A DNA stretch of 64,000 nucleotides, taken from positions 38,905 to 102,904 of the forward strand of contig WRMK01000001.1 of the NCBI GenBank assembly GCA_009777155.1, written 5' to 3'. Shown in pieces: positions 27,711-55,624 of this stretch. A model generated the notes under the pieces. It was not told the DNA's origin and searched no databases. It was given only the letters and a program-made list of their open reading frames with translations. The DNA is from Oscillospiraceae bacterium. Lineage in GTDB: Bacteria > Bacillota > Clostridia > Oscillospirales > Ruminococcaceae. The translations under genes were made by a program, and so were the position numbers. Within the stretch, counting starts at the first letter, position 1; each line of letters begins with the position of its first letter.

Positions 27711-28724
27711 TCAAACCGCATTAGCAAATTCATTAGCATTATTGAAAAAATCCGCCATTGCCTGTTGGCTTTTTCGCATGTCCTTTTTGGCTAAATGGGT
27801 GTAGATTTTTCGGACGGTTGAATAATCCGACCAGCCGCCGACAAGCATGACGTAGGCTTCGGGTACATTAAGATGATACGCCAAAGATGCAAAACTGTGC
27901 CTTAATCCGTGCAAACCGACCTCAGGTAAACCATTTTTCCGACAAATTCTGTTTATTTGTGCTCTCGCCGAATCGGGGCATCTTAATTGTATTTCGCTAA
28001 TATTCGAGCAGACTTCATGTAAACGCGGAATCATTACATTAATATCGCGGCGGGAGGCGTTGTTTTTGTTTTCCGGCTTGCTGACGAGGTTGTTATCAAC
28101 GTCCGGGACTACTGCACCGCGCACCTTGATAACGCCGTTCTTAATTTCGGGAATTGCCCATATCTCGCTACGGCGCAGGCTGTGAAGCGCGAGGAGTGCG
28201 GGGATTTCGCAGTCTTTGTCCTTGATTGCGCTTATGAAAATCGGGATTTGCTCGGGTTCTAAAAATGGCCGCTCTTTTTTGATTATTTGCGGTAATTTAA
28301 CTTTCGGCGGAATAATGCCCTGCTCCAATAAGACCGATTTCACAAAACCCCACGCATTTTTCAGCGTTTTCGGTGAACACAGCAGAGCCTCGGCGTTGCA
28401 AACGCTCTGCCAATCTTTTATTTTATCAATCGGCGTATTCATAACGGCTTGAAATCTATTGTTTAAGATGATTGTGTACCCCCGCACGGTTACAGGGGAA
28501 AGGGTGTTGCTCCGCGCCGCTATGTACTTTTCAACCGCCTGCCGCAACGTCAGCCCGCAGGTCTGCTTTACCCGCACATCTGCCTTATGCCCGGACTTTA
28601 TAAGCCGGGCTTTATTTATGCAATCTTTTTCCGTAAGCGCGCTAACCGACACGCTCTCACCGCCAAGCCGCAGTTGTATAAACCAACTACCGGACGGAAG
28701 CTTGCGAGGTTTTGGGAGTTTCAT
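27711..28724 (-). CDS. Tyrosine integrase
   Basis: 337 residues. N-terminal core-binding domain (about 60-160) and a catalytic domain with the first Arg in LLALHSLRRSEIW, the HxxR box HGLRHSFASLA and the nucleophile Tyr in VRKIYTHLAKK. It sits next to the tRNA fragment and would insert the prophage there. Confidence 0.93.
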   Translation of the reverse strand: MKLPKPRKLPSGSWFIQLRLGGESVSVSALTEKDCINKARLIKSGHKADVRVKQTCGLTLRQAVEKYIAARSNTLSPVTVRGYTIILNNRFQAVMNTPIDKIKDWQSVCNAEALLCSPKTLKNAWGFVKSVLLEQGIIPPKVKLPQIIKKERPFLEPEQIPIFISAIKDKDCEIPALLALHSLRRSEIWAIPEIKNGVIKVRGAVVPDVDNNLVSKPENKNNASRRDINVMIPRLHEVCSNISEIQLRCPDSARAQINRICRKNGLPEVGLHGLRHSFASLAYHLNVPEAYVMLVGGWSDYSTVRKIYTHLAKKDMRKSQQAMADFFNNANEFANAV

Positions 28725-28752: not shown

Positions 28753-29601
28753 TTAACTCTTTTCTTTAGTCTTCAAAATATCCATAATTATATCTATTTT
28801 GCGCTCAATTTCTATCAACTCGTCGGATTTTTCTTCGAGATTGTTTTGATTAATTTCCTCCATAAATCCGGACGAAATTATACCCGTTGGAACGGCTACA
28901 AGTCCGATACCCAAAAACGCAATCACGGTGCCGAGAAATCGCCCTAACCCGGTTATCGGGAAAATATCGCCGTATCCCACCGTTGTGAGAGTTGCGACCG
29001 CCCACCATAAACCCGAAAAAGCGTTACTGAAAACATCCGGTTGTGCTTCATGCTCGAAAGTGTACATCAATATCGAAGCCATCAGCATTAAAATCAGCAA
29101 AACAAACAAAGACGAAATCAACTGCACGGCTTTGCGCCTTAAAACACCGCTAATACTCGATAACGCCTTTGTGTAGCGGTTTATTTTCAACAATCTCACC
29201 AATCGCACAAGTCTCAACATACGCAGAACGCGCAAATCCACAGGGAAAATGAAAGGCAAGTAGAACGGCAGAATAGCGAACAAATCCACAAGCGCCATGA
29301 ATGAAAAAGCGTATTTAACGCGGGCAACGGCGGCTTTTTTATCGGGATATAAATATTCGGAAGTCCACAAACGCAAAACGTATTCTATAGTGAAAATTAT
29401 CAGCGAAACAAACTCAACCGTCCTCGAGGTCGCAACCACCCACGAGGGCAGACCGCTGAAAGTATCTAAAACTACGAGAAAAACATTGATAATTATAAGG
29501 ACGAGTATAAACCACTCAAACACAGACCCCACAACGTTCCGCTTTTGAGATGGCTGAATAATGTCAAAAACAGCCTTTTTTGCTTTACTGATACTGCTCA
29601 C
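28753..29601 (-). CDS. Voltage-gated potassium channel-like protein in the lysogeny module
   Basis: 282 residues, six membrane helices. S4 is a classic arginine ladder, RVLRMLRLVRLVRLLKINR (about 124-142), and the pore has the K+ selectivity filter TTVGYGD (206-212). The C-terminus is an acidic coiled coil. It lies between repressor and integrase on the same strand, where prophages carry genes expressed in the lysogen, so it may affect membrane potential of the host or block other phages. That role is inference; the channel family is clear. Confidence 0.93.
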   Translation of the reverse strand: MSSISKAKKAVFDIIQPSQKRNVVGSVFEWFILVLIIINVFLVVLDTFSGLPSWVVATSRTVEFVSLIIFTIEYVLRLWTSEYLYPDKKAAVARVKYAFSFMALVDLFAILPFYLPFIFPVDLRVLRMLRLVRLVRLLKINRYTKALSSISGVLRRKAVQLISSLFVLLILMLMASILMYTFEHEAQPDVFSNAFSGLWWAVATLTTVGYGDIFPITGLGRFLGTVIAFLGIGLVAVPTGIISSGFMEEINQNNLEEKSDELIEIERKIDIIMDILKTKEKS

Positions 29602-29619
29602 GTCCTTTTCTGCATGGCA

Positions 29620-30006
29620 TTATGTAGTCTCTTGATTTTGTTTTAATTTCAGCTTTATTATCGCGCCGAAACTTTTTCCGTTGTCGCCGCCGTAAACTTT
29701 AAGATTAAAGCCGCCGACAATACGGTCGCCGTTTTCGATGAGCCATTCTTTTTTATCACGCGGAATATTTCCGATTTGCTGACCGTTTACATAAACCCCC
29801 AAAGCAACCTCGCCCTCAAAGTCATATTGCTCAATAGAAACTTGACAATTATTAGCAAACTCATCATCTCTAAACTTTATTTTACGCAAAATAGTCTGCC
29901 GATGTTTTCTCCCGTTTTTGAATGTAACGCCTGCAACCTTTATTTCAACTTCTTCATATATAGGTGCGGGGGTTTTTTTGGCGAACAGATTACTAAAAAA
30001 TCCCAT
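29620..30006 (-). CDS. HIRAN-like domain protein
   Basis: 128 residues. The block VAGVTFKNGRKHRQTILRK, then YVNGQQIGNIPRDKKEW and FNLKVYGG, fits a HIRAN domain, a small fold that in helicases recognises DNA ends. Here it stands alone, after a short N-terminus rich in Phe and Pro. It is encoded 18 bases before the ion channel and 27 bases after the repressor, so the three form one unit. Function in the phage is unknown. Confidence 0.7.
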   Translation of the reverse strand: MGFFSNLFAKKTPAPIYEEVEIKVAGVTFKNGRKHRQTILRKIKFRDDEFANNCQVSIEQYDFEGEVALGVYVNGQQIGNIPRDKKEWLIENGDRIVGGFNLKVYGGDNGKSFGAIIKLKLKQNQETT

Positions 30007-30033
30007 TGTGTAATCCTCCGTAAAATGCTTTAT

Positions 30034-30411
30034 TTATGCCATTTCCCTTTTTCCCACACCGGAAACACCAAACCCTTTTTTATATGTATTACAAGCTGCG
30101 TACATAGTTTGTCTTACAAACTCCTTGCCCTGTTCACTCAGCGACCGATAATCTTCAAGGAGCTTCATCTCATCATCGGTCATCGGTTCCCCTTCGCCTT
30201 TGGGTTTTTCTTCCCAGCCCATAAGCCAAGCAACAGAAGTATCCAAAACATTTGCAAAAGCAGAAATTTTTGACTGCGGAATATCAACCGAACCGGATTC
30301 TATTTTTGCAATGCTCGAACGCGATGTATAACCCATCGCTTGGGATAATTCGTCTTGTGTCATGCCGAGTTCTTCTCGCCTGTCTTTAATTCTTTTATAT
30401 AAATCCGTCAC
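30034..30411 (-). CDS. Prophage repressor, XRE family
   Basis: 125 residues from GTG 30411, which follows AAAGGTGG; the ORF-track start at 30444 would lie before the probable transcript start. HTH in MTQDELSQAMGYTSRSSIAKIE; C-terminal part after PKGEGEPMTDDE is helical. It diverges from the Cro-like gene across the operator region and is the likely CI-type repressor. Confidence 0.88.
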   Translation of the reverse strand: MTDLYKRIKDRREELGMTQDELSQAMGYTSRSSIAKIESGSVDIPQSKISAFANVLDTSVAWLMGWEEKPKGEGEPMTDDEMKLLEDYRSLSEQGKEFVRQTMYAACNTYKKGFGVSGVGKREMA

Positions 30412-30432: not shown

Positions 30433-30473
30433 ATAATAACACAAGAATTTCCAAAAGTCAATAAAAATTGACT
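30433..30473 (-). promoter_or_regulatory. Repressor promoter and palindromic operator
   Basis: Minus strand TTGACT (plus 30456-30461) and TATTAT (plus 30433-30438), 17-base spacer. The -35 box is half of a perfect palindrome AGTCAAT-AAAA-ATTGACT (30456-30473), a good repressor operator for self-control. Confidence 0.75.
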
Positions 30474-30561
30474 AAAAATATAATGTTTATTTATATTCAC
30501 CAATCTAACGCATGTAAGTATATGCACATTCAACAAAAATTGTCTTTTTGCAAAATATGTA

Positions 30562-30634: not shown

Positions 30635-30871
30635 ATGACGAACAGCCAATTATTAATAAGCATTATTAAAGAAAGTGGTTTTAAATTGAAAGCGGTAGCG
30701 AAAAAAATGAATTTAAGCCCTTACGGCTTACAACGCAAGATAAACAATACGGTAGAATTTAAGGCGGGCGAAATTTCCCGTCTATGTAAAATACTCAATA
30801 TAGAGAGTTGTCAACAAAAGGAGCAGATTTTTTTGCCCATCAAGGTGATTTTAATTCACGCGAGGGTGTGA
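30635..30871 (+). CDS. Cro-like HTH protein
   Basis: 78 residues. HTH around LKAVAKKMNLSPYGLQRKIN and ISRLCKILNI, of the kind encoded first in the early operon of Firmicute phages. It probably competes with the repressor at the operator. Confidence 0.8.
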   Translation: MTNSQLLISIIKESGFKLKAVAKKMNLSPYGLQRKINNTVEFKAGEISRLCKILNIESCQQKEQIFLPIKVILIHARV

Positions 30872-30924
30872 AACCTGCCTAATCCTCAAATTCTCAATCA
30901 TGTCCGCCGAAAAAGGAGCTCACC

Positions 30925-31173
30925 ATGCCAAAAACCAAACCCCTAACCAAAGACCCCTTTGAATCCTTTTTAATTCTAATCCGCGGCACAATGGTCGTAA
31001 AGGGCGAAACCGCAGACACAATCAGCGCGAAAACCAATATAAATCGCCAAACATTTTACGCACCTTTGCGAAATCCGCACGATTTTAGAGTGAGCGAATT
31101 GCAGGGGGTTTCAAAGGCCCTCGGCATACCGTGGAGCGAATTGCGGGATAAATTACCGGAAAAAAGTTGTTAG
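30925..31173 (+). CDS. Second small HTH protein of the early operon
   Basis: 82 residues with GETADTISAKTNINRQTFYAP and VSELQGVSKALGI, a degenerate XRE-type HTH. AAAGGAG precedes the ATG. Role unknown; likely an early regulator. Confidence 0.7.
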   Translation: MPKTKPLTKDPFESFLILIRGTMVVKGETADTISAKTNINRQTFYAPLRNPHDFRVSELQGVSKALGIPWSELRDKLPEKSC

Positions 31174-31215
31174 TTTAATGCAGGAAAAAATCTAAACTTT
31201 AAGGAGAGAAAAACC

Positions 31216-31410
31216 ATGTCAATTACAGAAAAAATTAAGAACATTCAACTGCCGCCCTGCCCTTTTTGTGGCGGGAAAAGCGACATCGCGGTCGCTACAA
31301 AAGCTGTCATTTTTTGCTGGGATTGCGGTGCACAAGTTTCGCACAAAAGCATTGATGAAGCGGTCGCAAAATGGTGCCGCAGGGACGGCGAAAGGAAGGT
31401 GCCGGCATGA
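31216..31410 (+). CDS. Lar-like zinc-ribbon protein
   Basis: 64 residues with PCPFCGG near the N-terminus and CWDCGA in the middle, then a helix ending AVAKWCRR. This is the two-CxxC pattern of Lar/restriction-alleviation-like phage proteins. It overlaps the next gene by four bases. Confidence 0.75.
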   Translation: MSITEKIKNIQLPPCPFCGGKSDIAVATKAVIFCWDCGAQVSHKSIDEAVAKWCRRDGERKVPA

Positions 31411-31805
31411 ACGAAAACACAGGCACATGCAGGTTTTGCGGGCAGAATCGCATAGTTGACGAAAAGTATAAAAAACTGCCCGGAGAAAAGCGTGATGAAG
31501 CGGTGACAAACGCTTGCACCTGCCCCGAAGCAAGGCGCGCCGTCCGGGTAAAAGAGCAGATTGAAAAAGCGCGGAATTGTATAAATCAACTTTGCGGCGA
31601 GGAAGCGGCAAGCATCGGAATTTCGCCGATAAAAACCGAGGCAATCGAACAGATGTATGCGGTTGTTGATTCAATTGCGAATGGCAATTTACGCAGCGCA
31701 ACTTTACAAATTTGTTCGCGGTGTAAAGTTGTTATCGGCTTGACTTCAAAAGGCACAATTAAAGTAAAACGCACCGATAGCAAAACCCATCAACTTGAAG
31801 AATAA
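31407..31805 (+). CDS. Cysteine-rich early phage protein
   Basis: 132 residues from ATG 31407 (ATGA overlap with the previous stop). CRFCGQN and CTCPEA in the N-terminal part and ICSRCKVVIG near the C-terminus suggest metal binding. No family recognised. The long ORF-track start at 31371 is not used. Confidence 0.7.
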   Translation: MNENTGTCRFCGQNRIVDEKYKKLPGEKRDEAVTNACTCPEARRAVRVKEQIEKARNCINQLCGEEAASIGISPIKTEAIEQMYAVVDSIANGNLRSATLQICSRCKVVIGLTSKGTIKVKRTDSKTHQLEE

Positions 31806-31820
31806 AAAAGAAAGGACATA

Positions 31821-33173
31821 GTGAAAATTATGAACGAAATTATCTACTTAGAAACCTCACGTTTAACCCCGCATATAAACAATCCGCGCAAGGATTTAGG
31901 GGATTTGAGCGAGTTTACGGAGAGTGTTAAGGCGAACGGAATACTGCAAAATCTTACAGTTGTACCTACTGACATTGCGGAGTTTCGCAAAATGCGGACA
32001 AGCAAGCGAAAGTATAACGGCGACTACATAATTATCATCGGACACCGCCGCCATGCCGCCGCAAAACTTGCAGAACTTGACAAAATTCCCTGCATTATCG
32101 CCGACATGGACGAAAAAACCCAACTCGCGACTATGTTGCTTGAAAATATGCAACGCAGTGACCTGACAATTTATGAGCAGGCGCAGGGTGTACAGCTGCT
32201 ACTTGACATGGGCGAAAGTCAAGCCGCAATCGCAAAAAAGACAGGTTTTTCAAAGTCAACTATCAGCAAAAGAATGAAACTTTTGCAGTATAATCCTGAT
32301 GATTTTAAGGGGGCAACCGAGCGCGGCGCGACCCTCGAAGATTTCGAGCAACTTGACAAAATTAAGGACAAAACTATCCGCGAAAGTGTACTCGAACACG
32401 CAGGAACTAACAATTTTAATTTTAAGTTAAGAAATGCACTTGACAAAGAAAAAGAACTCGAAACTATGAGAAAACTTAAAGAAAAATTGTTAACTTTTGC
32501 AAAGGAAATTAAGTCAACAAACGGTTATAATAACTTTTCAAATATTTGGGTCTACACCGCAGAAAGTTATACTATTCCGGACGATGCAGAAACTGTTAAT
32601 TATTACTTTGTTGATGGTGGGAATCACGTTAAACTTTGCACGGATAAAACAGAGGAAGAAAAGGCCGCAAAAGCCGATAATACCGCGAAAAACAACGCCG
32701 ATGAAGAGCGACTTCAAAAACTTAAAAACTTATCAAATCAAGCCTACGAATTGCGGTGCGATTTTGTCAAAAACATATCCGACAAAACCGCAAAAAGCAA
32801 GGCAGGTGTTATCGTCAAATTCGCGGCAGAAAGTGTAATTTCTAGCTTGCTTTATTTCAATGATGTTGACTTGAAGTCGCTATTTGGCATTTTTGGAATT
32901 GAATTTGATGTTGATGTCGATAATGACACTGCTTTTGAAATAATCGAAAAAAGTTACAAGGTATCTTATGAGAAGTTGCTTTTGGTATCAATTTTTTTCT
33001 CGCTTGATAATAACTTGAATTACTTTTATGAACTTCTGCATAAACCCCCGGAGCATAAATTTAACGAAACACTTGACTTTGTTTATAGTTTTCTCACGGC
33101 TCTCGGCTATGAAATGTCGGACGAGGAAAAGGCTTTGCAGAGCGGTGTTCATGGGTTGTTTGAATCGGTATAA
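31821..33173 (+). CDS. ParB/Spo0J-like nuclease-domain protein
   Basis: 450 residues. N-terminal ParB domain with DLSEFTESVKANGILQN, IIIGHRRHAAAKLAEL and ENMQRSDLTIYEQAQG, then an HTH (QAAIAKKTGFSKSTISKRMK). The C-terminal 250 residues are charged and unrecognised. Phage proteins of this kind may act in DNA replication or partition; no ParA is nearby, so plasmid-type partition is unlikely. Start GTG 31821 after AAAGGA; ATG 31830 is possible. Confidence 0.88.
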   Translation: MKIMNEIIYLETSRLTPHINNPRKDLGDLSEFTESVKANGILQNLTVVPTDIAEFRKMRTSKRKYNGDYIIIIGHRRHAAAKLAELDKIPCIIADMDEKTQLATMLLENMQRSDLTIYEQAQGVQLLLDMGESQAAIAKKTGFSKSTISKRMKLLQYNPDDFKGATERGATLEDFEQLDKIKDKTIRESVLEHAGTNNFNFKLRNALDKEKELETMRKLKEKLLTFAKEIKSTNGYNNFSNIWVYTAESYTIPDDAETVNYYFVDGGNHVKLCTDKTEEEKAAKADNTAKNNADEERLQKLKNLSNQAYELRCDFVKNISDKTAKSKAGVIVKFAAESVISSLLYFNDVDLKSLFGIFGIEFDVDVDNDTAFEIIEKSYKVSYEKLLLVSIFFSLDNNLNYFYELLHKPPEHKFNETLDFVYSFLTALGYEMSDEEKALQSGVHGLFESV

Positions 33174-33293
33174 ACACAGAAGTGTTTATATACATGCGGA
33201 AAAAAGCATGTAAAAAAGACGGCGGTCTATGGCTTACGATAGGCTTTATCCCGGGGTTTTTGTGGGCTAAACTCGGGAGAAGGTTAAACCCAC

Positions 33294-33321
33294 CACCGAG
33301 CATTTTTTACAATGTTCGGTG
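33294..33321 (+). other. Stem-loop before the tRNA-like gene
   Basis: ACCGAGCATT and AATGTTCGGT pair over ten positions with one G-U. It directly precedes the tRNA-like sequence and could be a processing or termination structure. Another small hairpin, TACATGC/GCATGTA, lies at about 33191-33212. Between 33174 and 33495 I see only these and the tRNA-like gene. Confidence 0.5.
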
Positions 33322-33327
33322 AGAGAT

Positions 33328-33400
33328 GGCAGAGTGGAGTAATGGTGCTCGGACGTTTATACATTAGCGTTCCATGCGGGTTCAAGTCCCGCCTCTGCAA
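33328..33400 (+). tRNA. tRNA-like gene with enlarged anticodon loop
   Basis: 73 bases that fold as a tRNA: acceptor GGCAGAG / CTCTGCA (six of seven pairs), D-arm GAG-TAATGGTG-CTC with the GG, T-arm GCGGG-TTCAAGT-CCCGC with canonical TTC. The anticodon arm is abnormal: GGACG pairs with CGTTC but leaves a 12-base loop instead of seven, so no anticodon can be named. CCA is not encoded. It may be a degraded phage tRNA or a tRNA mimic. Confidence 0.55.
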
Positions 33401-33495
33401 GTCGCCTGACATGTGACAACGGCGCGGAAAACCCTCCAAAATTATAATATTCCGCGCCGCCGCTTCGGCGGGAAAACGCTTGAAAGGGAAAGCAA

Positions 33496-33648
33496 ATGAA
33501 AGCAATACTTGAATTAAAACTTCCCCGAAATTGCAGGGAGTGCATTTTAAAAGAAAATGGAGTTTGCAAGCCCATAAGTCATAGCAAGGAAGAACGTGCT
33601 GAGTTTTGTCCGTTGAAAATTAAGGGGGAAATAAAAAATGAATATTGA
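33496..33648 (+). CDS. Small cysteine-rich phage protein (below ORF-track length)
   Basis: 50 residues, ATG 33496 preceded by GAAAGGGAAAG. Four to five cysteines (NCREC, GVCKP, EFCPL) suggest a small metal-binding protein of the type common in early regions of Firmicute phages. It overlaps the next gene by 11 bases. Confidence 0.65.
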   Translation: MKAILELKLPRNCRECILKENGVCKPISHSKEERAEFCPLKIKGEIKNEY

Positions 33649-33925
33649 TAAAGCAAACGCTATTTTTATGCAAATTAATAGGGAAGATATCGCCGACAAT
33701 GACAAGATTACAGCAATTAAAATGACTGTAGAAATGCCCATGCATATGGGGATAAAAATAGTTAATTTGCTTGGTGTAATTCGGTTTTTACTTGATAAAA
33801 ATGCGCGGTTAGAACACGATAACGAGAAACTTCGTACAGGGTTGCAAGAACTAATCGCTATGTCTGCCGAGCGGATTAAAGGGGTAGATAAATTTTTAGA
33901 AAATTTAACGGCAGAAAAATGCTAA
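33638..33925 (+). CDS. Hypothetical phage protein
   Basis: 95 residues, largely helical, with LLDKNARLEHDNEKLRTGLQEL as a short coiled coil. GGGGGAA precedes the ATG. No family recognised. It overlaps the following gene by seven bases. Confidence 0.65.
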   Translation: MNIDKANAIFMQINREDIADNDKITAIKMTVEMPMHMGIKIVNLLGVIRFLLDKNARLEHDNEKLRTGLQELIAMSAERIKGVDKFLENLTAEKC

Positions 33926-34170
33926 TCGCCCTACACGATGCCGAGCGCGACCACATGCCCGGTAAGATTTTTCCGAACTTCGCGCTTATGAAAATTTCCG
34001 CATATCATAAGGCACAGGGCGACACGGTTACATGGCGGAACGCTTGTGAAAATGACGAATATGACCTTGTTTATTCCTCAAAAGTTTTCGATTTCACACC
34101 CGAAAATCCCTACTTGCCGCCGAACGCAATTACAGGCAGAACGCAACGCGGCAAAAGGCATTACACCTAA
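33919..34170 (+). pseudogene. Truncated N-terminus of a phage radical-SAM/B12-type protein
   Basis: 83 residues. FPNFALMKISAYHKAQGD and YDLVYSSKVFDFTPENPYLP match the N-terminal domain of larger phage radical-SAM proteins as I remember them, but the CxxxCxxC part is missing and the frame ends in unrelated residues. The shifted frame after it (34046-34273) ends YKRESWREYCRNRGLKFD and may be the tail of another small gene joined by a deletion. Confidence 0.5.
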
Positions 34171-34265
34171 CGCAAGTCAGCTTGAATATTGTCAAAAATA
34201 TGTTTTTAAGGGGCTTTATAAAAGGGAAAGTTGGCGAGAATATTGCAGAAATCGAGGGTTGAAAT

Positions 34266-35909
34266 TTGACTAACAAAGAAATCACAATAGACGGTTTTTG
34301 CGGGGGCGGCGGCTGGTCTACCGGCTTTGAAATTGCCATAGGCGAGCCGGTCACAATCGGGATAAATCACGATGCCGACGCAATCGCCATGCACAAGGCG
34401 AACCACCCCGAGACCCGGCATTACAACGAAAATATTTTCGAGGTTGACCCGCGCGAAGCCTGCGCCGGGCGGCCTGTAGGCTGGGCGCATTTCTCGCCCG
34501 ATTGCACACACTTTTCCGTTGCCAAAGGCGGCAAGCCTGTGAAAAAGACAATCCGCGGGCTTGCGTGGGTTGTTGTAAAGTGGGCAGGGACGGTCAAGCC
34601 GCGCATTATTTCAATGGAAAACGTCAAGGAATTTATGACGTGGTGTCCGCTTGTTGCGAAACGTGGTGAGTGCGGTAGAGTGATAAAAATTGACGGCACC
34701 GAAGCAGAACGCGGTGAATATGTGCCGCTAAATCAGCAGTACTTGAAACCCGACAAACGCAGGAAGGGCGAAACTTTCCGCAAGTTTATTAAAGCGATGA
34801 AATCGCTCGGTTACGAGGTCGAGTGGAAAGTTTTAACCGCCAGCGATTACGGCGCGCCGACCTCGCGAAAACGATTGTTTATAATTTTTCGCCGCGGCGG
34901 AAAGCCGATTGTGTTTCCAAAACCGACCCACGGCGACCCGAAAAGCGAAGCTGTGAAATCGGGGGAATTATTGCCGTGGCGCACCGCCGCCGAGTGTATT
35001 GACTGGAGCCACGCACCGAAGTCGATATTCGAGCGTGAGAAGCCGCTCGCCGAAGCCACGCTTGCCCGAATCGCACGAGGTATTAAAAAATTTATTGCGG
35101 AAAATCCCGAGCCGTTTATACTTAATTTCAAATTCGATAATTCGCCCGAGGATATTTGCAAACCCCTTAGTTCAATGACGACTGTGCGAAGTCATTATGT
35201 GGTAGAACCTCACATTATTCATCTAAATCACAGCAAAGATAACTTTCGCGGACAAAGGATTGACAAGCCTTTACCGACATTGACATCAAAACAAAGTATC
35301 GGGGTAGTTGCATCGTTCATGTGCAAGCATTACGGCGGCGGTTATACCGGCGCGGGGAGCGCGCTGAAAACCCCACTTGACACAATCACAGCCACAGACC
35401 ATAATGCGGTTGTCGGCGCGACTTTGATTCAGACCGGCTACGGCGAACGGCAAGGACAAGCTCCGCGAGTACCCGGAATTGACAAGCCGCTCGGGACGAT
35501 TGTCAGCGCGAATAAACACGCAGTTATCGCCGCATATATGGACAAAAGATACGGTGACAATGGCGGGGCGCGCGGGAGTGATTTGAATTCGCCGCTTGAC
35601 ACCGTAACCAAAAAAGACCACAATCAACTTGTCGAGATTTTCCTCGAAAAACACGGACTTGTTTCAGACATCGAAATCTACGGCGAAAAGTACAAAATAA
35701 CCGACATCTGCATGAGAATGTTGGAGCCGCGAGAACTTTACCGGGCGCAGGGTTTTCCCGATGATTACATAATCGAGTACGATTGCAACGGGAATAAATT
35801 CCCGAAAAGTAAGCAGGTCGCAAAGTGCGGAAATTCCGTGCCGCCTGCGTTTGCCACGGCTTTGGTGAGGGCGAATTGGGCGGAGAAATGTGGAGGTGAG
35901 CAGACATGA
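34266..35909 (+). CDS. DNA (cytosine-5) methyltransferase
   Basis: 547 residues. SAM-binding motif I DGFCGGGGWSTGF, catalytic motif IV FSPDCTHFS with Cys80 (DC instead of the usual PC), motif VI ISMENVKEF, motif VIII region SDYGAPTSRKRLFI, and C-terminal motifs IX-X (LYRAQGFPDDY, GNSVPPAFA). Start is TTG 34266 after GAGGGT. No partner restriction enzyme is next to it, so it probably protects phage DNA or regulates. Target unknown. Confidence 0.93.
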   Translation: MTNKEITIDGFCGGGGWSTGFEIAIGEPVTIGINHDADAIAMHKANHPETRHYNENIFEVDPREACAGRPVGWAHFSPDCTHFSVAKGGKPVKKTIRGLAWVVVKWAGTVKPRIISMENVKEFMTWCPLVAKRGECGRVIKIDGTEAERGEYVPLNQQYLKPDKRRKGETFRKFIKAMKSLGYEVEWKVLTASDYGAPTSRKRLFIIFRRGGKPIVFPKPTHGDPKSEAVKSGELLPWRTAAECIDWSHAPKSIFEREKPLAEATLARIARGIKKFIAENPEPFILNFKFDNSPEDICKPLSSMTTVRSHYVVEPHIIHLNHSKDNFRGQRIDKPLPTLTSKQSIGVVASFMCKHYGGGYTGAGSALKTPLDTITATDHNAVVGATLIQTGYGERQGQAPRVPGIDKPLGTIVSANKHAVIAAYMDKRYGDNGGARGSDLNSPLDTVTKKDHNQLVEIFLEKHGLVSDIEIYGEKYKITDICMRMLEPRELYRAQGFPDDYIIEYDCNGNKFPKSKQVAKCGNSVPPAFATALVRANWAEKCGGEQT

Positions 35910-36139
35910 AAATAAACAAACTCAACATAATAAAATGGCTCGCAATAATCGCAATAACCGTAATACTTTTCCTGTGTGCAAAAAAACACGCTTACGAATT
36001 TCGCGGTTATGAAGCCATCGGTGGCGAGTATATTATACTGCTGTTGCCTGTGATTTTTGTTTTAATTCGCAAGGTTGTGAAGGATTGGTTGAACCGGTGG
36101 CGAGCGGCTTGTGAGGAGGTAAAACGAGATGATACATAA
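35906..36139 (+). CDS. Small membrane protein
   Basis: 77 residues with two hydrophobic helices (WLAIIAITVILFLC and YIILLLPVIFVLI) and a basic C-terminus. It overlaps the methyltransferase stop (ATGA) and the next gene by 11 bases. No family. Confidence 0.7.
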   Translation: MKINKLNIIKWLAIIAITVILFLCAKKHAYEFRGYEAIGGEYIILLLPVIFVLIRKVVKDWLNRWRAACEEVKRDDT

Positions 36140-36902
36140 ACCAATCTACACCCCCAAAGGTTGCGCCAACGAATATTGCGAGCTGGCTTTGAACATTTAC
36201 AAAGGCTGTAACCACGGCTGTACCTACTGTTTTGCGCGCGGAATGGCGAAACGCTTCACACCGAAAGGCAGTGTCTGTAATTTCGATAATCCCGTCCCGA
36301 AAAAGGATATTGTCGAATCGGTCAAGCGGCAAATCGAGCGCGAGCAGATGACAGGCAAGTTAATTCATCTGTGTTTCAACTGCGACCCTTACCCTTCAGA
36401 AATTGACACCACGCCGACCCGCGAGATTATCAAAATTATAAAGCAAAGCGGAAATCACGTGCAGATACTTACTAAAGGCGGCCGCCGTGCGGAACGTGAT
36501 TTTGATTTACTTGACAAAAATGACTGGTTTGGTGTTACTTTTACGGGTTTATTTACAGCAGAAGATAATAAAAAATTCGAGCCTTATTCTGCGGGGTTTT
36601 ATTACCGTCTTGACACAATTGAAAAAGCACACTTAAAAGGTATAAAAACGTGGGTATCGCTTGAACCTGTGATGGTTCCGGCGAATGTTAAATTAGTTTT
36701 AGAGAGCAACAGAAATATCGACCTTTTCCGAATCGGCAAACTGAACTTAGACAGAAACAACTCAACCCCCGAATTAGAAGCAATCCACGACAGCATAAAC
36801 TGGCACGACTTCGGGCATGGGTGCGAGCGGCTTTGCTTGGCGCATGGGCGCAACTATTATATTAAAGAGGACTTGCGAAAGGAGATGCAACATGTTATAT
36901 AA
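36129..36902 (+). CDS. Radical-SAM protein, SPL-like
   Basis: 257 residues. The iron-sulfur motif is CNHGCTYC (Cys27, 31, 34). Other segments are CFNCDPYPSEID, VQILTKGGRRAERD and WVSLEPVMVP, as in spore-photoproduct-lyase-like radical-SAM proteins that are frequent in phages. Substrate unknown. The start overlaps the preceding gene by 11 bases. Confidence 0.9.
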   Translation: MIHKPIYTPKGCANEYCELALNIYKGCNHGCTYCFARGMAKRFTPKGSVCNFDNPVPKKDIVESVKRQIEREQMTGKLIHLCFNCDPYPSEIDTTPTREIIKIIKQSGNHVQILTKGGRRAERDFDLLDKNDWFGVTFTGLFTAEDNKKFEPYSAGFYYRLDTIEKAHLKGIKTWVSLEPVMVPANVKLVLESNRNIDLFRIGKLNLDRNNSTPELEAIHDSINWHDFGHGCERLCLAHGRNYYIKEDLRKEMQHVI

Positions 36903-37104
36903 AACCTGCCCCCCCTGCAAAAGCAACCTTGACCCCGGCGAGACTTGCGACTGCGATTTCGGGTTTATCCCGCCTCGAGAACCTGTTGCTTACACCCCGA
37001 GGGTGATTGCAAAGCCCAAACCGACACCCGAGGAAATCACAATTATCACCGCGAATATTATCAGAAATATCGAGGTCAAATCGGCGGCGAGGGCCATGAG
37101 TTAA
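36892..37104 (+). CDS. Small Cys-rich phage protein
   Basis: 70 residues from ATG 36892 after AAAGGAG. CPPCKSNLDPGETCDCDFG is a short metal-binding-like motif; the remainder is Pro-rich and helical. The ORF-track extension to 36817 lies inside the radical-SAM gene. Confidence 0.65.
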   Translation: MLYKTCPPCKSNLDPGETCDCDFGFIPPREPVAYTPRVIAKPKPTPEEITIITANIIRNIEVKSAARAMS

Positions 37105-37233
37105 CAGCCCCCTATATATATAATAGTATACCCGCAAAATTTTCAAGGGCGAAACGGCCTTTTTCGGGCTTGTAATGGAGCTTAACATTTCGGCGAAATG
37201 CAAATGTTCACAAAAACAACGGAGTATGAAAAA

Positions 37234-37629
37234 ATGAGAATAAATAATTTTGTTTTGAAAACTCAGTCTGTCCGTCCGTCATTCTGTGAAATGTTAGAAA
37301 TTGTCAAAGAGGGCATCGAATTTGAGTGCATAGATGAGCATGACAAAACATGGGCGGTGGAGCTTTGTAAAATAATCACCGAAGTCATGTTGTTGAACCC
37401 CGGCGGCGAAATCAGAATTGCCGGCGAGGACATGAGCGTTTCGCTTGTGCAGGAAATTTATTCACAGCTCGCATGTGAACACATAACATCGGTAATCTGC
37501 AATTATCGGAAAGTTACCAAAAAAATTAAGAACAAGCGAGCGTATCTGCGAACTATGCTTTACACGGCGTTTTTTGAGGAAGTTTCGGAAAACGAAAATG
37601 ATTTTGCAATGTTGGAAAGGGCTTGGTGA
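37234..37629 (+). CDS. Replication-module protein, possibly remnant of DUF6017-type initiator
   Basis: 131 residues from ATG 37234 after CGGAG. The C-terminal stretch (HITSVICNYRKVTKKIKNKRAYLRTMLYTAFF) resembles the end of Firmicute replication-initiator-like proteins, where a similar motif forms the last helices. The N-terminal HTH of those proteins is absent. It precedes the HUH Rep gene by three bases. Confidence 0.55.
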   Translation: MRINNFVLKTQSVRPSFCEMLEIVKEGIEFECIDEHDKTWAVELCKIITEVMLLNPGGEIRIAGEDMSVSLVQEIYSQLACEHITSVICNYRKVTKKIKNKRAYLRTMLYTAFFEEVSENENDFAMLERAW

Positions 37630-37632
37630 AAG

Positions 37633-38523
37633 ATGACTTTTGTGCGTGAAAAGCAAATTTATTGCGGCGAGGAGTACTTGGAAATCGACCTCTACAACTA
37701 CACTGGCACAGAGCGGGAAATCGCGCAAGGCGGTCTGCGCGGCAAAAAAGAAATCCTTTCCACACCTCGGCAAATCGACCTGAACGAGGAAGCCTCACGC
37801 CGCAAATTCACACAAGTCGTCAACACAAATTTCAAAAACGGCGATTTTCATGTGACTTTGTCTTACGCTGATGAAAACATTCCCGCAACAGTCGAGGGAG
37901 CAATGCGCGACTTAGAGAATTACATACGCAGGCTTAATTACAGATTGGCAAAAGACGGAAAAGCCCCGCTGAAATATATTTCAATCCCTGCCTGTGTCTT
38001 CAAAAGCGACGGCGTTACACCTGCGCGGGTGCATCATCACATCATCATGAGTTGCAACCTTGACACTGCCGTGATTATCGACACATGGCGCAAAAGGCGC
38101 AAAAAGGGGCAGAAACAAGGCGACAAAATCGGCAGGGTCAATGCCGATATAATCCAAACTCTTGACGATGAATACGGGCTTGCGGCATTGTGCACATATT
38201 TGTCAAAGCAGGCGGGCGGCAAAAAAAGATGGCGACCGTCTCACGGGCTTGAACAGCCGCTCCCGGATATTATCGACTCCGACGGCGAACAGCTGAGGCT
38301 GTCATTCTCGGCGAACCTCGAAAAGCCCGTCAGTGTCACCAACAACCGCCGCTTCAGCCGAAAGGAAGTAGAAAAAATCGCAAAAGCCCCGCTCGATGTC
38401 GCCTACTGGGAAAAGCGTTACCCCGGCTACACCGTGGTCAAGGGGGATTACGGCTTTAAGTCCGTCTACTCCGACCTGCGAGGCTGGGCGGTCTACCTGA
38501 AAATGCGCAGGGTTCGGGAGTAG
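37633..38523 (+). CDS. Rolling-circle (HUH) replication protein
   Basis: 296 residues. Motif 1 DFHVTLSYAD, HUH motif ARVHHHIIMS (His134-136) and a candidate catalytic Tyr189 in AALCTYLSKQAGG. These are the marks of small phage/plasmid Rep nucleases that nick one strand and start rolling-circle synthesis. In a tailed prophage it is the only clear replication gene, so it probably initiates phage DNA replication. Confidence 0.85.
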   Translation: MTFVREKQIYCGEEYLEIDLYNYTGTEREIAQGGLRGKKEILSTPRQIDLNEEASRRKFTQVVNTNFKNGDFHVTLSYADENIPATVEGAMRDLENYIRRLNYRLAKDGKAPLKYISIPACVFKSDGVTPARVHHHIIMSCNLDTAVIIDTWRKRRKKGQKQGDKIGRVNADIIQTLDDEYGLAALCTYLSKQAGGKKRWRPSHGLEQPLPDIIDSDGEQLRLSFSANLEKPVSVTNNRRFSRKEVEKIAKAPLDVAYWEKRYPGYTVVKGDYGFKSVYSDLRGWAVYLKMRRVRE

Positions 38524-38566
38524 GGGCGCAGATGTATCGGAAAAATTTGTAGGGGGTGGTGTAAAA

Positions 38567-39019
38567 ATGAAAAGCGTAACCGAGATACTAAAATTCTGCC
38601 GCGACATCGACAAAGAAATACTTTACAACAACATGCGCGTTGCCGAATGTCACGAGTTGCTTCAAAACGCAGGCGGGAGCGTTTCGTTTGTTGCTATGTC
38701 AAAAAACAAGCACAACAATTCAAACCCGACCGAGAAAATATATATCGCAACCCATGACAAAATCGAACGCTTGACACAGAAAAACGAGGAAATACGCGCT
38801 TTCAAAGATGCGGTTTACAACGAAATCGACAATCTCTCGCCGGTCGAGAAAATAATTATTTATGGGTTTTACATAAAAAAATTCAGTTGGATGCGTATTT
38901 CGGCGGAAGTTCATTTTTGTATTCGGCAGTGCAAAAACATACGCGACCGCGCTGTGGAAGTGCTTGAGGACAAGTTCAAATCAAATAAAACTATCGCCGA
39001 CTTCAAATTCAACGGGTAG
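38567..39019 (+). CDS. Sigma-like late-gene regulator
   Basis: 150 residues. The second half, LSPVEKIIIYGFYIKKFSWMRISAEVHFCIRQCKNIRDRA, has the arrangement of a sigma region-4/ArpU/RinA-type HTH. Such proteins sit just before the terminase genes and turn on late transcription. Confidence 0.8.
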   Translation: MKSVTEILKFCRDIDKEILYNNMRVAECHELLQNAGGSVSFVAMSKNKHNNSNPTEKIYIATHDKIERLTQKNEEIRAFKDAVYNEIDNLSPVEKIIIYGFYIKKFSWMRISAEVHFCIRQCKNIRDRAVEVLEDKFKSNKTIADFKFNG

Positions 39020-39145
39020 AAATTTCACGTCTTTGCCCATATATATACTATTTTCAAAAGATTGCCCGCCATTGCCCGATTTTTGTGTTATAATAGAAAC
39101 ATGAAAATCTGTCAAGTGGGATTTTCCCCGTGAAATTGTCATTTA

Positions 39146-39182
39146 AACGAACATTGGGCGAGGCTTGAGGTTCGTTTTTTAT
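39146..39182 (+). terminator. Probable terminator before late genes
   Basis: AAACGAAC and GTTCGTTT form an 8-bp stem with a 17-base loop ending in a T-run. A TATAAT preceded by TG lies just upstream at about 39090 (extended -10), so late transcription may begin here and be controlled by antitermination. Confidence 0.5.
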
Positions 39183-39248
39183 CGTTTCCGAGAAAAGTGG
39201 AATTGTAAAAATATAAAAACAAACAAACAAACGAATAGAGGTGATGAC

Positions 39249-39884
39249 GTGGATACCGTTCAGAAAAAACGCGGCGGTCAAAAAGGCAACAAAAACGCCA
39301 AAGGGCAAGGTGCGCCTAAGAAAAACAAGAACGCAACAGGCCACGGCGCACCGAAAAAGAACAGAAACGCCGCCGGGCATGGCGCGCCAAAGCAAAACAA
39401 AAACGCCGAGACCCACGGTGCGTACAGCTCTGTTGATTTCTCCGCGCTTTCGGAAAAGGACAAAGAATATATAAAACTTCTCGGAAATTTGAGCGTACGC
39501 GAAAAAATGAATGAGAAGTTAGAATTTCTTTATGTCAAGCGGCACGACCTCATGAATCGCATTGAAAAATTAAAAGCCGACGATGATTCGGGCTTGCTTT
39601 ACACCGATAAAGAAATCGTTTCAAATTCAGCCAAAGGCGAAACCACATCGACTATTAGGGGGAGTGCGTTTCAAAGGCTCGTGGTACTCGAAAATGTTTT
39701 GAATAACACCAACACTAAAATTATCAAGCTACTCACTATCCTAAAAACAGATGAGTTTGAAGAACGCAAACATCAGCTTGAAGCAGATAAATTCGACTTG
39801 GCAAAACAAAAAGCAATCGGCGAGTTTAACGTAGAACTCGATGTAGACAGTGAACAAAACCCGGCAAAAGCGACGAAGGCCTAA
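39249..39884 (+). CDS. Small-terminase-like protein with GNKNA repeats
   Basis: 211 residues from GTG 39249, after GAGGTGATGAC. The N-terminus is a set of about four 12-residue repeats (KKNKNATGHGAP type), a hallmark of PBSX-type small terminases, then a helical part with SALSEKDKEYIKLLGN and RGSAFQRLVVLENVLN. A second, lambda Nu1-like small-terminase gene follows, so one of the two may have a different packaging role. The DNA has matching direct repeats. Confidence 0.75.
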   Translation: MDTVQKKRGGQKGNKNAKGQGAPKKNKNATGHGAPKKNRNAAGHGAPKQNKNAETHGAYSSVDFSALSEKDKEYIKLLGNLSVREKMNEKLEFLYVKRHDLMNRIEKLKADDDSGLLYTDKEIVSNSAKGETTSTIRGSAFQRLVVLENVLNNTNTKIIKLLTILKTDEFEERKHQLEADKFDLAKQKAIGEFNVELDVDSEQNPAKATKA

Positions 39885-40026
39885 AGGTACTTTCGGCCGC
39901 TTTTCTCCTCTTGCGGGTTCGGCGACCCCGGGGGCTGTTCAGATACGAAAAAAATTTAACCGCTTCCGTGATTTACATTAATTTTTTTGTGGGTGCGGCG
40001 AATTGGCGCAAAAGGGGTGCGGCTGT

Positions 40027-40548
40027 TTGAAAACTTTGAAATTATATTATACAAAGGCGGTTGCAAGGGTCCTCGATTTGTCGGAAAGGCGGGTAAGGCA
40101 GTTAAAAAGTTCGGGGGTAATTCACGAGCATAAAGGTGCAAAAGGGCTTTATGATTTAATCCCGACTGTGCATAATTATATTAACTACCTGCGAAATCGC
40201 AACCCGGACAGCGGCGAGAACATTGACTACAACACCGAACGCGCTTTGTTGGTACAGGCGAAACGGCGCGACATCGAATATGACTTAGGCGTAAAAGAGA
40301 AAACGCTTCATACATCAGCTGAGATTGAAACGGTAATGACGGGTATGTTTATTAATTTCAAGAACCGCTTAATGGCAATCCCCTCGAAATTGTCGCCGAT
40401 ATTGTCAAAAAAGACGGACAAAGCGGCAATCCACAGGATATTAAAAGAGTCCATTGATGAAGCCTTGTATGAGCTTGCAAGTTTTGAAAATACTTTCAAA
40501 AACGAGGGGGAGAGTGAGGAAAATGAAAATGAAAGCGGAAACCTATAG
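40027..40548 (+). CDS. Terminase small subunit, Nu1-like
   Basis: 173 residues from TTG 40027 (after AAAGGGG). N-terminal winged HTH YTKAVARVLDLSERRVRQLK with a basic wing, a long helical middle and an acidic C-terminus, as in lambda Nu1. It would recognise the packaging site. Its end overlaps the GpA gene. Confidence 0.8.
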   Translation: MKTLKLYYTKAVARVLDLSERRVRQLKSSGVIHEHKGAKGLYDLIPTVHNYINYLRNRNPDSGENIDYNTERALLVQAKRRDIEYDLGVKEKTLHTSAEIETVMTGMFINFKNRLMAIPSKLSPILSKKTDKAAIHRILKESIDEALYELASFENTFKNEGESEENENESGNL

Positions 40549-42352
40549 TTTATTTAAGCGGGTATTCGACGTTTTGAAGCCGCCGCCCGATATGTCGCTT
40601 GCAGATTGGGCAGATGAATACCGCATTTTGTCAAAAAAGACATCGGCAGAGCCGGGGCGATGGAAGACGAGCAAAGCCCCGTATCAAAGAGAAATCATGA
40701 ACGCAATTTCGGATATAAGCGTTCAAAAAGTCGTTGTAATGTCGGCGGCGCAAATAGGGAAAACAGACGGCTTTATTCTAAACCCGATAGGGTATTTCAT
40801 GCACTACGACCCTTCCCCGATTTTGGTAATGCAACCGAACATTAAACCTTTGGGCGAGTCGTTCAGCAAAGACCGATTGACACCTATGTTGCGCGACACG
40901 CCTGTTTTGCGAGATAAAGTAGACGATAAATTACGCACCGGCACAAACACAATCCTACACAAAGAGTTCCCGGGCGGGCATATTACTATTGTCGGCGCAA
41001 ATTCACCATCGGGGCTTAGAAGCCGCCCTATTCGGATTTTGCTTGCAGATGAAATTGACGGCTACCCTGCTTCGGCAGGCAACGACGGCGACCCGCTCTT
41101 GCTTGCAGACAAACGCCTTACCACCTTTTGGAATAAAAAGATTGTTCTGATTTCCACGCCGACCATTAAAGGCACATCGCGAATCGAACTTGAATTTGAG
41201 AAAAGCACGCAGGAAGTATGGCATGTGCCGTGCCCTGCTTGCGGCGAGTATCAAGAATTATTATGGGCGAACGTGATTTTCAAAAAAGAAAATTTGAACG
41301 AAATAGAATATTTATGTGAAAAATGCGGTGTGTTAAGCGGCGAGGTTGACTGGAAAGAAAAGTATACAAGCGGCAAGTTTATACCGCGCTTCCCCGGCAG
41401 AAAAACTCGCGGCTTCTTCTTAAACAGCCTTGCTTCCCTCTTTGTTGAGTGGCGAGAAATTGTAGAAAAGTTTCTTGTTGCGAACGAGGAAAAGAAAAAA
41501 GGCAACATCGCGCTCCTCAAAGCATGGACTAATATAGAAATGGGGCAGACGTGGGAGGAGGAAGGCGAGGAAATCGAACCCGACAGCATTTATAAGCGGC
41601 GAGAAAAATATAATGCGGAAGTGCCTGCCGGTGTTATTTGCCTTACCGCCGGAGTTGACACACAGGACGACAGGCTTGAAGTTGAGGTTGTCGGCTGGGG
41701 TGAAGACTTTGAAAGTTGGGGGATTAAATACCAGGTTTTTTATGGCGACTTAAAAAAAGAAGACGTATGGAATAGACTTAGCAAGTTGTTAGACAAGACT
41801 TTCGCTCGTGAGGACGGCGCGAAACTCCGTATAGTCTGCGCCTGTATCGACAGCGGCGGGCATTTCACAAACGAGGTCTACAAATTTTGCAAGAAAAGAT
41901 TTTCCCTAAATACATTTGCGATTAAGGGCTTCGGCGGTTTCAGTATTCCTTACATTGGCAACGCTTCAACTTCAAACAGGGCTAAAACGCATTTAATTAA
42001 ACTCGGTGTTGACATAGGAAAACATCAGCTCTATCAAAGGCTGGCTGTTGAAAATGCAGGGGCGGGCTATTGCCATTTCCCCGAAAACTCCGACTGCGGG
42101 TATGATGAGGATTACTTCAAGGGTTTAACCTCAGAAAAAATGGTGCTGACATACAAAAAAGGCATTGCAAGCTATGTTTGGAAAAAGAAAACGAGCGGCT
42201 ACAGAAACGAACCGCTCGACTGCCGCAACTATGCACAAGCCGCCCTCGAAATTGCGGGCGGTATTTTAATACTCAAAAAATCCGACAAAAAAGAAACCGC
42301 ACCGCTTGCAAAAAAGAAAGGGCGGCGGACTATTTCAAAGGGGGTAGATTAG
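40523..42352 (+). CDS. Terminase large subunit, GpA family
   Basis: 609 residues from ATG 40523 after GTGAGGAAA; the ORF-track start at 40454 is in the preceding gene. Signature segments are LADWADEYRILS, the ATP loop SAAQIGKTDG, LLADEIDGYP (Walker B region), a CPACGEYQELLW zinc-like pair with CEKCG, and the nuclease part around AGVDTQDDRLEVEVVGW. It packages DNA into lambda-type heads. Confidence 0.93.
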   Translation: MKMKAETYSLFKRVFDVLKPPPDMSLADWADEYRILSKKTSAEPGRWKTSKAPYQREIMNAISDISVQKVVVMSAAQIGKTDGFILNPIGYFMHYDPSPILVMQPNIKPLGESFSKDRLTPMLRDTPVLRDKVDDKLRTGTNTILHKEFPGGHITIVGANSPSGLRSRPIRILLADEIDGYPASAGNDGDPLLLADKRLTTFWNKKIVLISTPTIKGTSRIELEFEKSTQEVWHVPCPACGEYQELLWANVIFKKENLNEIEYLCEKCGVLSGEVDWKEKYTSGKFIPRFPGRKTRGFFLNSLASLFVEWREIVEKFLVANEEKKKGNIALLKAWTNIEMGQTWEEEGEEIEPDSIYKRREKYNAEVPAGVICLTAGVDTQDDRLEVEVVGWGEDFESWGIKYQVFYGDLKKEDVWNRLSKLLDKTFAREDGAKLRIVCACIDSGGHFTNEVYKFCKKRFSLNTFAIKGFGGFSIPYIGNASTSNRAKTHLIKLGVDIGKHQLYQRLAVENAGAGYCHFPENSDCGYDEDYFKGLTSEKMVLTYKKGIASYVWKKKTSGYRNEPLDCRNYAQAALEIAGGILILKKSDKKETAPLAKKKGRRTISKGVD

Positions 42353-42577
42353 ATGGCGGGAATAGATTTACAGACCGCAGAAAAACACCTTGCCGCATGG
42401 CTTGAAGCCGAGCTTGAATTGACTACCCACCAAAGCTACAGAATCGGTACGCGGTGGCTGACAAAAGCGGACTTAAAAGAAGTCCGCAATCAGATTAAAT
42501 ATTGGCAAGGCGTAGTGAATCAGCTAAAAGGCAGAGGGCGCAACCGCGTTTACCGCGGCGTTTTGCGAGATAACTAA
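42353..42577 (+). CDS. DUF6148 / gpW-like head protein
   Basis: 74 residues between terminase and portal. TAEKHLAAWLEAELELTTHQSYRIG and AIDLKEV-like helical segments are typical of DUF6148 proteins, which occupy the place of the head-joining protein gpW. It starts one base after the GpA stop. Confidence 0.8.
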   Translation: MAGIDLQTAEKHLAAWLEAELELTTHQSYRIGTRWLTKADLKEVRNQIKYWQGVVNQLKGRGRNRVYRGVLRDN

Positions 42578-42603
42578 AGAATTGGCAAATAAGGAGACAA
42601 GGC

Positions 42604-45325: not shown

Positions 45326-45344
45326 GAAAGGAAGGAGAAACATC

Positions 45345-47093: not shown

Positions 47094-47110
47094 GTTTCCA
47101 AGGAGGTCTA

Positions 47111-48297: not shown

Positions 48298-48323
48298 CTA
48301 AAAATACAAGGAGGGAATATATA

Positions 48324-48662: not shown

Positions 48663-48665
48663 AAT

Positions 48666-50213: not shown

Positions 50214-50229
50214 GAAGGAGTGTAAAAAA

Positions 50230-50751: not shown

Positions 50752-50772
50752 AAAAATTATTGGAGGTTCAAA

Positions 50773-51299: not shown

Positions 51300-51302
51300 A
51301 AT

Positions 51303-51390: not shown

Positions 51391-51435
51391 CGCCCTTTTG
51401 TATTCTAAAGCAATTCCGAAAGGGCGTGGGGAAAA

Positions 51436-54943: not shown

Positions 54944-54966
54944 GGGGGCGGGTGCTATAAATAATA

Positions 54967-55605: not shown

Positions 55606-55624
55606 TCCATCACCTCTTACATAT

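What the first reader, a model, noticed from the sequence alone, without database searches (positions are those of the whole stretch)
28753..30411. Voltage-gated potassium channel and HIRAN protein in a prophage lysogeny operon
Between repressor and integrase lie a clear Kv channel (arginine-ladder S4, TTVGYGD filter) and a HIRAN-like protein on the same strand. Genes here are usually expressed in the lysogen and often protect the host from other phages. A channel that opens on membrane change plus a DNA-end-binding domain could be an unreported exclusion or abortive-infection pair. The sequence shows the genes and their order; the role is inference.
Basis: partly seen in the sequence, partly recalled or inferred. 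Interest (0 to 1): 0.65.

Follow-up and report, generated by a model that had tools for sequence, protein, structure and literature searches.

The report
Potassium channel carried by dormant phages
Many unrelated dormant bacterial viruses carry an intact, nerve-type voltage-gated potassium channel gene squeezed between the two genes that keep them dormant, probably to protect the host cell from rival viruses, although no one has tested this; the second gene first thought to be its partner is only an occasional companion.

Summary
On the minus strand lie repressor (30411-30034), a HIRAN-like protein (30006-29620), a complete six-helix voltage-gated K+ channel (29601-28753) and a tyrosine integrase (28724-27711), with gaps under 30 bp. 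The channel has a seven-charge S4, the F/E/D charge-transfer centre and TTVGYGD. Enterococcus phages with a related repressor-ImmA pair lack the channel, so it is a swappable cargo. The 'pair' half is weak: HIRAN-like proteins are a separate recurrent cargo of the same slot and adjoin a channel in only three elements (here, L127, G357), in both orders. 'DNA-end-binding' is not supported: 0 of 28 relatives keep the canonical NPYD loop, and 20 of 28 have a predicted N-terminal transmembrane segment. Best reading: a lysogen-expressed voltage-gated K+ channel that responds to depolarisation by an infecting phage and blocks or aborts it, with the HIRAN-like protein as optional neighbour. Phage exclusion is inferred, not shown. 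PADLOC has no model for either; paper searches found no report.

The parts
28753..29601 (-). Six-TM voltage-gated K+ channel (Kv type), 282 aa, GTG start; intact S4 ladder, TTVGYGD filter, charged C-terminal cytosolic tail
29620..30006 (-). HIRAN-like protein, 128 aa; short hydrophobic N-terminus MGFFSNLFAKK, then HIRAN-like beta domain lacking the canonical NPYD loop
30034..30411 (-). CI-type HTH_3 repressor, 125 aa from the GTG with Shine-Dalgarno (136 aa if the upstream TTG is used)
27711..28724 (-). Tyrosine integrase, 337 aa, last gene of the operon
30433..30461 (-). Candidate lysogenic promoter (TTGACT-17-TATTAT, TG before -10)
   Evidence: consensus match only
30468..30497 (+). Candidate divergent early promoter (TTGACT-18-TATATT) facing the Cro-like and replication genes
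   Evidence: consensus match only
30635..56280 (+). Lytic side of the same prophage: small HTH proteins, ParB-like protein, DNA methyltransferase-like protein, replication initiator, terminase, portal, head protease, tail sheath, tape measure, endolysin-like protein

Best explanation
The channel is a lysogenic-conversion cargo gene of temperate phages, swapped in and out of the slot between CI repressor (with or without ImmA) and integrase and transcribed with the repressor in the lysogen. It makes a tetrameric voltage-gated K+ channel that stays closed at the normal cytoplasm-negative potential. When an infecting phage depolarises the membrane (DNA entry, or a phage membrane protein) the intact S4 sensor opens the pore; K+ flow clamps the potential and lowers cytosolic K+, which blocks DNA entry or stalls the infection. 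The HIRAN-like protein is an independent cargo of the same slot, mostly membrane-anchored in its relatives, which here and in two other elements adjoins the channel and may tune its opening or sense another infection cue. Shown: gene integrity, operon layout, recurrence, presence/absence cargo behaviour, purifying selection. Inferred: lysogen expression, K+ conduction, gating by infection, exclusion phenotype, any HIRAN-channel contact.
For: Repressor-Kv-integrase on one strand in 36/72 distinct viral-contig homologues versus 1/80 genome-contig homologues (Fisher P about 1e-13; the collections differ in kind, so P is descriptive). About three slot lineages in a 153-row tree; slot label needs 9 changes against 29 for shuffled labels. 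Every slot channel (40/40) keeps the GYGD filter, F70, D106 and R130; 31/40 have all seven S4 charges and 9/40 six. dN/dS about 0.07 for the two informative close channel pairs and 0.07-0.28 for HIRAN-like pairs. phiFL1A has CI-ImmA (82% DNA identity to channel-bearing Enterococcus relatives) directly followed by integrase, without the channel. Slot neighbours include Abi_2 (2.4e-47) and HSDR_N (1e-12) proteins. Precedents: a membrane channel encoded with or near CI aborts infection in lambda RexAB, Sbash, CarolAnn and P. putida P1 (PMC12894663, PMC6426596); [quoted passage not shown]
Against: No experiment. PADLOC has no model for the channel. K+ efflux tends to repolarise rather than depolarise, so a Kv channel is an odd depolarising effector; a protective or stabilising role is equally compatible with the physics. 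Chromosomal relatives with the same fold exist without phage context. Guilt by association in a lysogeny slot also fits non-defence fitness genes. No expression data; both operon promoters are consensus matches only.
Confidence: 0.45

Rival explanations
1. Lysogen-stability or anti-lysis role: the channel opens on partial depolarisation and repolarises the membrane, preventing untimely holin triggering or spontaneous loss of membrane potential, so it protects the prophage and host rather than attacking rivals.
For: A voltage-gated K+ channel physically repolarises; location in the repressor operon; conserved full S4 charge ladder.
Against: Presence/absence in otherwise similar phages and a slot that also takes Abi_2 and HSDR_N proteins fit defence better than core lysogeny control.
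Confidence: 0.2
2. General host-fitness moron: the channel helps the lysogen cope with osmotic, K+ or acid stress, and was captured from host chromosomes.
For: Chromosomal relatives are common, and this genome has a 49% identical paralogue on another contig.
Against: Most phage-slot channels fall in lineages of their own, with a fuller S4 than most chromosomal ones sampled; two of the slot lineages are far from the host's own copy.
Confidence: 0.2
3. Channel and HIRAN-like protein form a dedicated two-component abortive-infection pair analogous to RexA-RexB: the HIRAN-like protein senses infection and opens the channel.
For: Adjacent and on the same strand in three elements: window, L127 (IMGVR 3300029305_006654) and G357:C145, the last with a channel like those of the other big lineage.
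Against: Most channel slots lack the HIRAN-like protein and most HIRAN slots lack the channel; gene order differs; canonical DNA-contact loop is missing in 28/28. The background rate of shared slots is unknown, so three cases may be chance slot-sharing.
Confidence: 0.1
4. Toxin-antitoxin-like arrangement: an over-active channel is the toxin and the HIRAN-like protein, like the putative HIRAN-containing HipN antitoxin, holds it closed.
For: HIRAN domains occur in putative antitoxins (HipN) next to HipI kinases (PMC8262856).
Against: The channel occurs alone in many slots without an obvious antitoxin.
Confidence: 0.05

Closest known systems
Lambda RexAB and RexAB-type systems (Sbash gp30/31, CarolAnn gp44/43, P. 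putida RexAB)
   Same: Membrane channel of a prophage, in lambda, CarolAnn and P. putida encoded with or near the repressor; two-gene layout in this window; membrane effector proposed (PMC12894663, PMC6426596)
   Different: RexB and Sbash gp31 are predicted four-TM proteins; here a six-TM voltage-gated K+-type channel. The putative sensor is HIRAN-like, membrane-anchored in most relatives, and usually absent.
Chlorovirus Kcv K+ channel
   Same: Virus-encoded K+ channel; depolarisation of the host prevents a second infection (PMC7019647)
   Different: Kcv is an 82-94 aa pore-only protein of algal viruses, thought to sit in the virion membrane; here a full voltage-sensor channel encoded in the lysogeny operon of bacterial prophages
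Kv channel family (KCNQ, Kv2)
   Same: Six-TM topology, S4 ladder, charge-transfer centre, TVGYGD filter
   Different: Phage location; no large cytosolic domains, only a short charged C-terminal tail
PHROG phrog_7872 ('unknown function'); 'ion transporter' in phages PLE2, JNU_P5, Dulem virus 33
   Same: Same channel family in the same repressor-integrase slot
   Different: Annotated only by name in those records; no function given; no HIRAN-like neighbour found there
HLTF/Rad5 HIRAN domain, lp_0118 (3k2y), HipN/HipL HIRAN
   Same: HIRAN-like sequence core and beta-rich fold
   Different: NPYD loop replaced, mostly by [YFW]-EG-x-P-A; transmembrane anchor in 20/28; near-neutral or acidic in most members

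Membership tests
Voltage-gated K+ channel (Ion_trans PF00520, Kv type) | Six-TM Ion_trans domain with pore loop | tested here: met
   Pfam 6.5e-34 over residues 26-249; KCNQ5 1e-26
Voltage-gated K+ channel (Ion_trans PF00520, Kv type) | S4 basic ladder and charge-transfer centre | tested here: met
   Seven basic residues, every third position; F70, E73, D106
Voltage-gated K+ channel (Ion_trans PF00520, Kv type) | K+ selectivity filter T-V-G-Y-G-D | tested here: met
   TTVGYGD; GYGD in 40/40 slot channels
Voltage-gated K+ channel (Ion_trans PF00520, Kv type) | Voltage-dependent K+ current | not testable with these tools
   Needs electrophysiology or K+-uptake complementation
HIRAN domain (PF08797) | Sequence profile match | tested here: inconclusive
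   Window protein: none; 6/28 relatives up to 6.6e-6; profile to HLTF E 0.017; L127 24.4 bits against a cut-off of 24.7
HIRAN domain (PF08797) | HIRAN fold | tested here: inconclusive
   AF2 pLDDT 87; Foldseek lists 3k2y and HLTF among top hits, prob 0.97 and 0.89, TM about 0.4-0.56, but no E below 0.05
HIRAN domain (PF08797) | NPYD loop used for 3' DNA-end binding | tested here: not met
   0 of 28 members; hence filed as HIRAN-like, not as a DNA-end binder. The role of the loop in HLTF is from general knowledge
RexAB-type exclusion | Encoded with or near the CI repressor on the same strand | tested here: met
RexAB-type exclusion | Four-TM RexB-like membrane protein | tested here: not met
   Six-TM Ion_trans protein; four TM for RexB and gp31 from PMC6426596
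RexAB-type exclusion | DNA-binding RexA-like partner needed for activity | tested here: not met
   HIRAN-like partner absent from most channel slots and its canonical DNA-contact loop missing; RexA homology itself was not searched for
RexAB-type exclusion | Phage exclusion by a membrane effect | not testable with these tools
   No phenotype data

The most novel reading that the evidence does not exclude
Voltage-gated K+ channels are a widespread, unnamed class of prophage exclusion effectors in which one protein is both sensor (of the depolarisation caused by an infecting phage) and effector (K+ flux), recruited several times into the repressor-integrase slot and sometimes coupled to a membrane-anchored HIRAN-like protein.
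Probability: 0.35. Interest if true: 0.85.

Novelty: new variant of a known kind. Interest (0 to 1): 0.6.

Why it matters
If the channel excludes phages, it would be a one-gene voltage-sensing phage defence: the depolarisation that infection itself causes would be the trigger. That would give a physiological role to a set of bacterial Kv channels whose natural function is largely unknown, and make it testable in defined lysogens. It also marks the repressor-integrase slot as a place to look for further membrane-acting cargo, including the membrane-anchored HIRAN-like family described here.

Tried and rejected
Direct Pfam or PHROG detection of HIRAN in the window protein failed; only the family alignment worked. 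tblastn of HIRAN-like proteins against annotated phages found nothing, so all HIRAN comparisons come from viral and genome contigs. The first viral scan with the HIRAN-like protein alone found only itself. PADLOC: no model for channel or HIRAN-like protein. The integrase scan meant to give a background rate of cargo in related slots found only the window's own virus, so the expected rate of channel-HIRAN sharing remains unknown and I make no enrichment claim. An apparent HIRAN hit next to the channel in L006/L007/L008 (4e-5) was rejected: by eye it is a two-TM protein with an Ada-like Zn motif, a motif also present in the L034 HIRAN-like protein. An amphipathic-helix test on the MGFFSNLFAKK N-terminus was not above shuffles, so membrane binding of the window's own HIRAN-like protein is not claimed. 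Exact direct repeats as att sites between the integrase flank and the right part of the window: none of 14 bp or more. Paper searches for prophage Kv channels returned nothing relevant; the library holds open-licence PubMed Central papers only.

Full report
OBSERVATION. The minus strand of the window carries, in transcriptional order, a CI-type repressor (30411-30034), a 128-aa HIRAN-like protein (30006-29620), a 282-aa channel (29601-28753) and a tyrosine integrase (28724-27711). Gaps are under 30 bp and no minus-strand terminator-like site lies in them. Lytic genes run on the plus strand from 30.6 kb to a tail sheath, tape measure and endolysin-like gene near 56 kb, so this is a contractile-tail prophage with the usual lysogeny/lysis split.

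THE CHANNEL. Pfam Ion_trans 6.5e-34; nearest solved structures are KCNQ and Kv2 channels. S4 has seven basic residues at every third position, the S2/S3 charge-transfer centre F70/E73/D106 is present, and the filter is TTVGYGD. It is therefore an intact Kv-type gene by sequence; conduction and gating are not shown.

RECURRENCE. Known temperate phages have the channel in the same place: PLE2 (repressor, metallopeptidase, channel, hypothetical, integrase), JNU_P5 and Dulem virus 33. Scans of viral and genome contigs with a channel alignment gave 80 loci each. With local profiles for repressor HTH and integrases, 36 of 72 distinct viral-contig channels have an HTH within 1.2 kb upstream and an integrase within 1.5 kb downstream, all on one strand, against 1 of 80 genome-contig channels; that one (L038) has the full repressor-channel-integrase layout itself and so looks like a prophage contig. 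The two collections differ by construction, so the Fisher value of about 1e-13 describes the contrast and is not a test of one hypothesis; the tight position and strand are what matter. In some slots the channel is the only cargo, in others an ImmA-like metallopeptidase (Peptidase_M78) lies between repressor and channel.

LINEAGES. In a 153-sequence tree the slot channels fall into about three groups: the window/L004 Clostridia-type group, a 38-row mostly viral group that includes Dulem virus 33, and the Lactobacillus/Enterococcus group with PLE2; the slot label needs 9 changes against a mean of 29 for shuffled labels, while starred branches alone force only 2. Support is SH-aLRT from a quick search and several long branches meet, so I claim repeated occupation of the slot, not an exact number of captures. 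In the window's own group slot channels and channels without detected phage context are interleaved.

PRESENCE/ABSENCE AND SELECTION. A prophage group that matches Enterococcus faecalis phage DNA (L183-L195) carries HTH-ImmA-channel-integrase; phiFL1A and relatives share the repressor-ImmA DNA at 82% identity but go straight to integrase. Close channel pairs give dN/dS about 0.07 (L142/L145, L150/L151); HIRAN-like pairs 0.07-0.28; pairs with only a handful of differences are uninformative. All 40 slot channels keep the GYGD filter and F70/D106/R130; mean S4 charge count is 6.8 of 7 against 5.2 of 7 in the sampled chromosomal relatives (relatedness not corrected).

THE HIRAN-LIKE PROTEIN. The window protein alone matches nothing significant in Pfam or PHROGs, but 40 viral loci encode relatives; 28 proteins were aligned. 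Six hit Pfam HIRAN, the family profile's best PDB hits are HLTF HIRAN (E 0.017), and the AlphaFold2 model resembles HLTF HIRAN and lp_0118 weakly. None of the 28 keeps the N-P-Y-D loop before the invariant alanine, most domains are near-neutral or acidic (the window's own is net +5), and 20 of 28 have an N-terminal transmembrane segment. I therefore call it HIRAN-like and do not assume DNA-end binding. These proteins are themselves frequent between repressor and integrase (for example L205, L207, L213, L214, L218, L222, L223, L230, L255, L333, L335, L338).

THE PAIR. Channel and HIRAN-like protein are adjacent in three distinct elements: this prophage, L127 (repressor, channel, HIRAN, serine integrase) and G357:C145 (HIRAN then channel, contig end, phage context not visible). 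The G357 channel is by eye and score like the second lineage, so the pairing probably arose more than once, but the order differs and no background rate could be obtained. In genomes of the same order the HIRAN-like family was found in 9 of 394 and the channel family in 53 of 394.

INTERPRETATION. A presence/absence membrane channel beside the repressor is the pattern of prophage exclusion genes. RexAB-type systems are the nearest precedent for a CI-linked membrane effector (PMC12894663, PMC6426596) and chlorovirus Kcv for a viral K+ channel linked to exclusion of a second virus (PMC7019647). I favour exclusion or abortive infection through a voltage-triggered K+ flux (0.45), with lysogen stability (0.2) and general host fitness (0.2) as serious rivals. 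It is not a RexAB member: six-TM, no obligate partner. The window's HIRAN-like protein is best seen as an optional neighbour.

LIMITS. No expression or phenotype data; profiles for repressor and integrase were built from a few seeds, so slots are under-counted; many loci are contig fragments; several viral contigs may be near-duplicates although identical channel proteins were removed; the library of papers is open-licence only.

Noticed in passing
61831-63773 (-): A second repressor plus serine recombinase module, overlapping by 4 bp and with no cargo between them, probably a neighbouring element; a useful empty-slot contrast in the same genome.
   Followed up: partly
11690-22523 (-): A second set of phage structural genes (SPP1-type portal, terminase-like) on the minus strand, separated from the channel prophage by a response regulator, histidine kinase and ABC transporter (22626-27532, +). 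The IMG/VR record appears to treat about 11.2-63.8 kb as one virus.
   Followed up: partly
56274-57365 (-): HSDR_N_2-type restriction-like protein on the minus strand after the endolysin-like gene; an HSDR_N protein also sits beside the channel in the slot of L249.
   Followed up: partly
L249:4572-9471: A relative of the same family has repressor, RNase_T exonuclease, zinc ribbon, channel, HSDR_N protein and integrase on one strand: a crowded, defence-like slot.
   Followed up: partly
L157:7837-8910: Abi_2 (Abi-like) protein directly between the channel and the integrase.
   Followed up: yes
L006:2902-3318, L121:2243-2464, L041:6155-6988: A recurrent two-TM protein (by eye) next to the channel, in L006 with an Ada-like Zn motif; possibly a more regular channel partner than the HIRAN-like protein.
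   Followed up: no
G000:C176:2000-2740 (-) (L002): Chromosomal channel paralogue, 49% identical, beside rsmB-like and mntP-like genes; its zinc-ribbon-like tail CPYCG also ends several phage channels.
   Followed up: partly
29601-29620 (-): The channel ORF is in the same frame as the HIRAN-like ORF, with one TAA and 18 nt between them; probably chance.
   Followed up: no
37633-38523 (+): Replication initiator related to rolling-circle proteins (PHROG 3584, 3419) in a tailed, contractile-tail prophage.
   Followed up: no
33327-33401 (+): ARAGORN tRNA-like hit with a four-base anticodon in the phage early region; likely a pseudo-hit.
   Followed up: no
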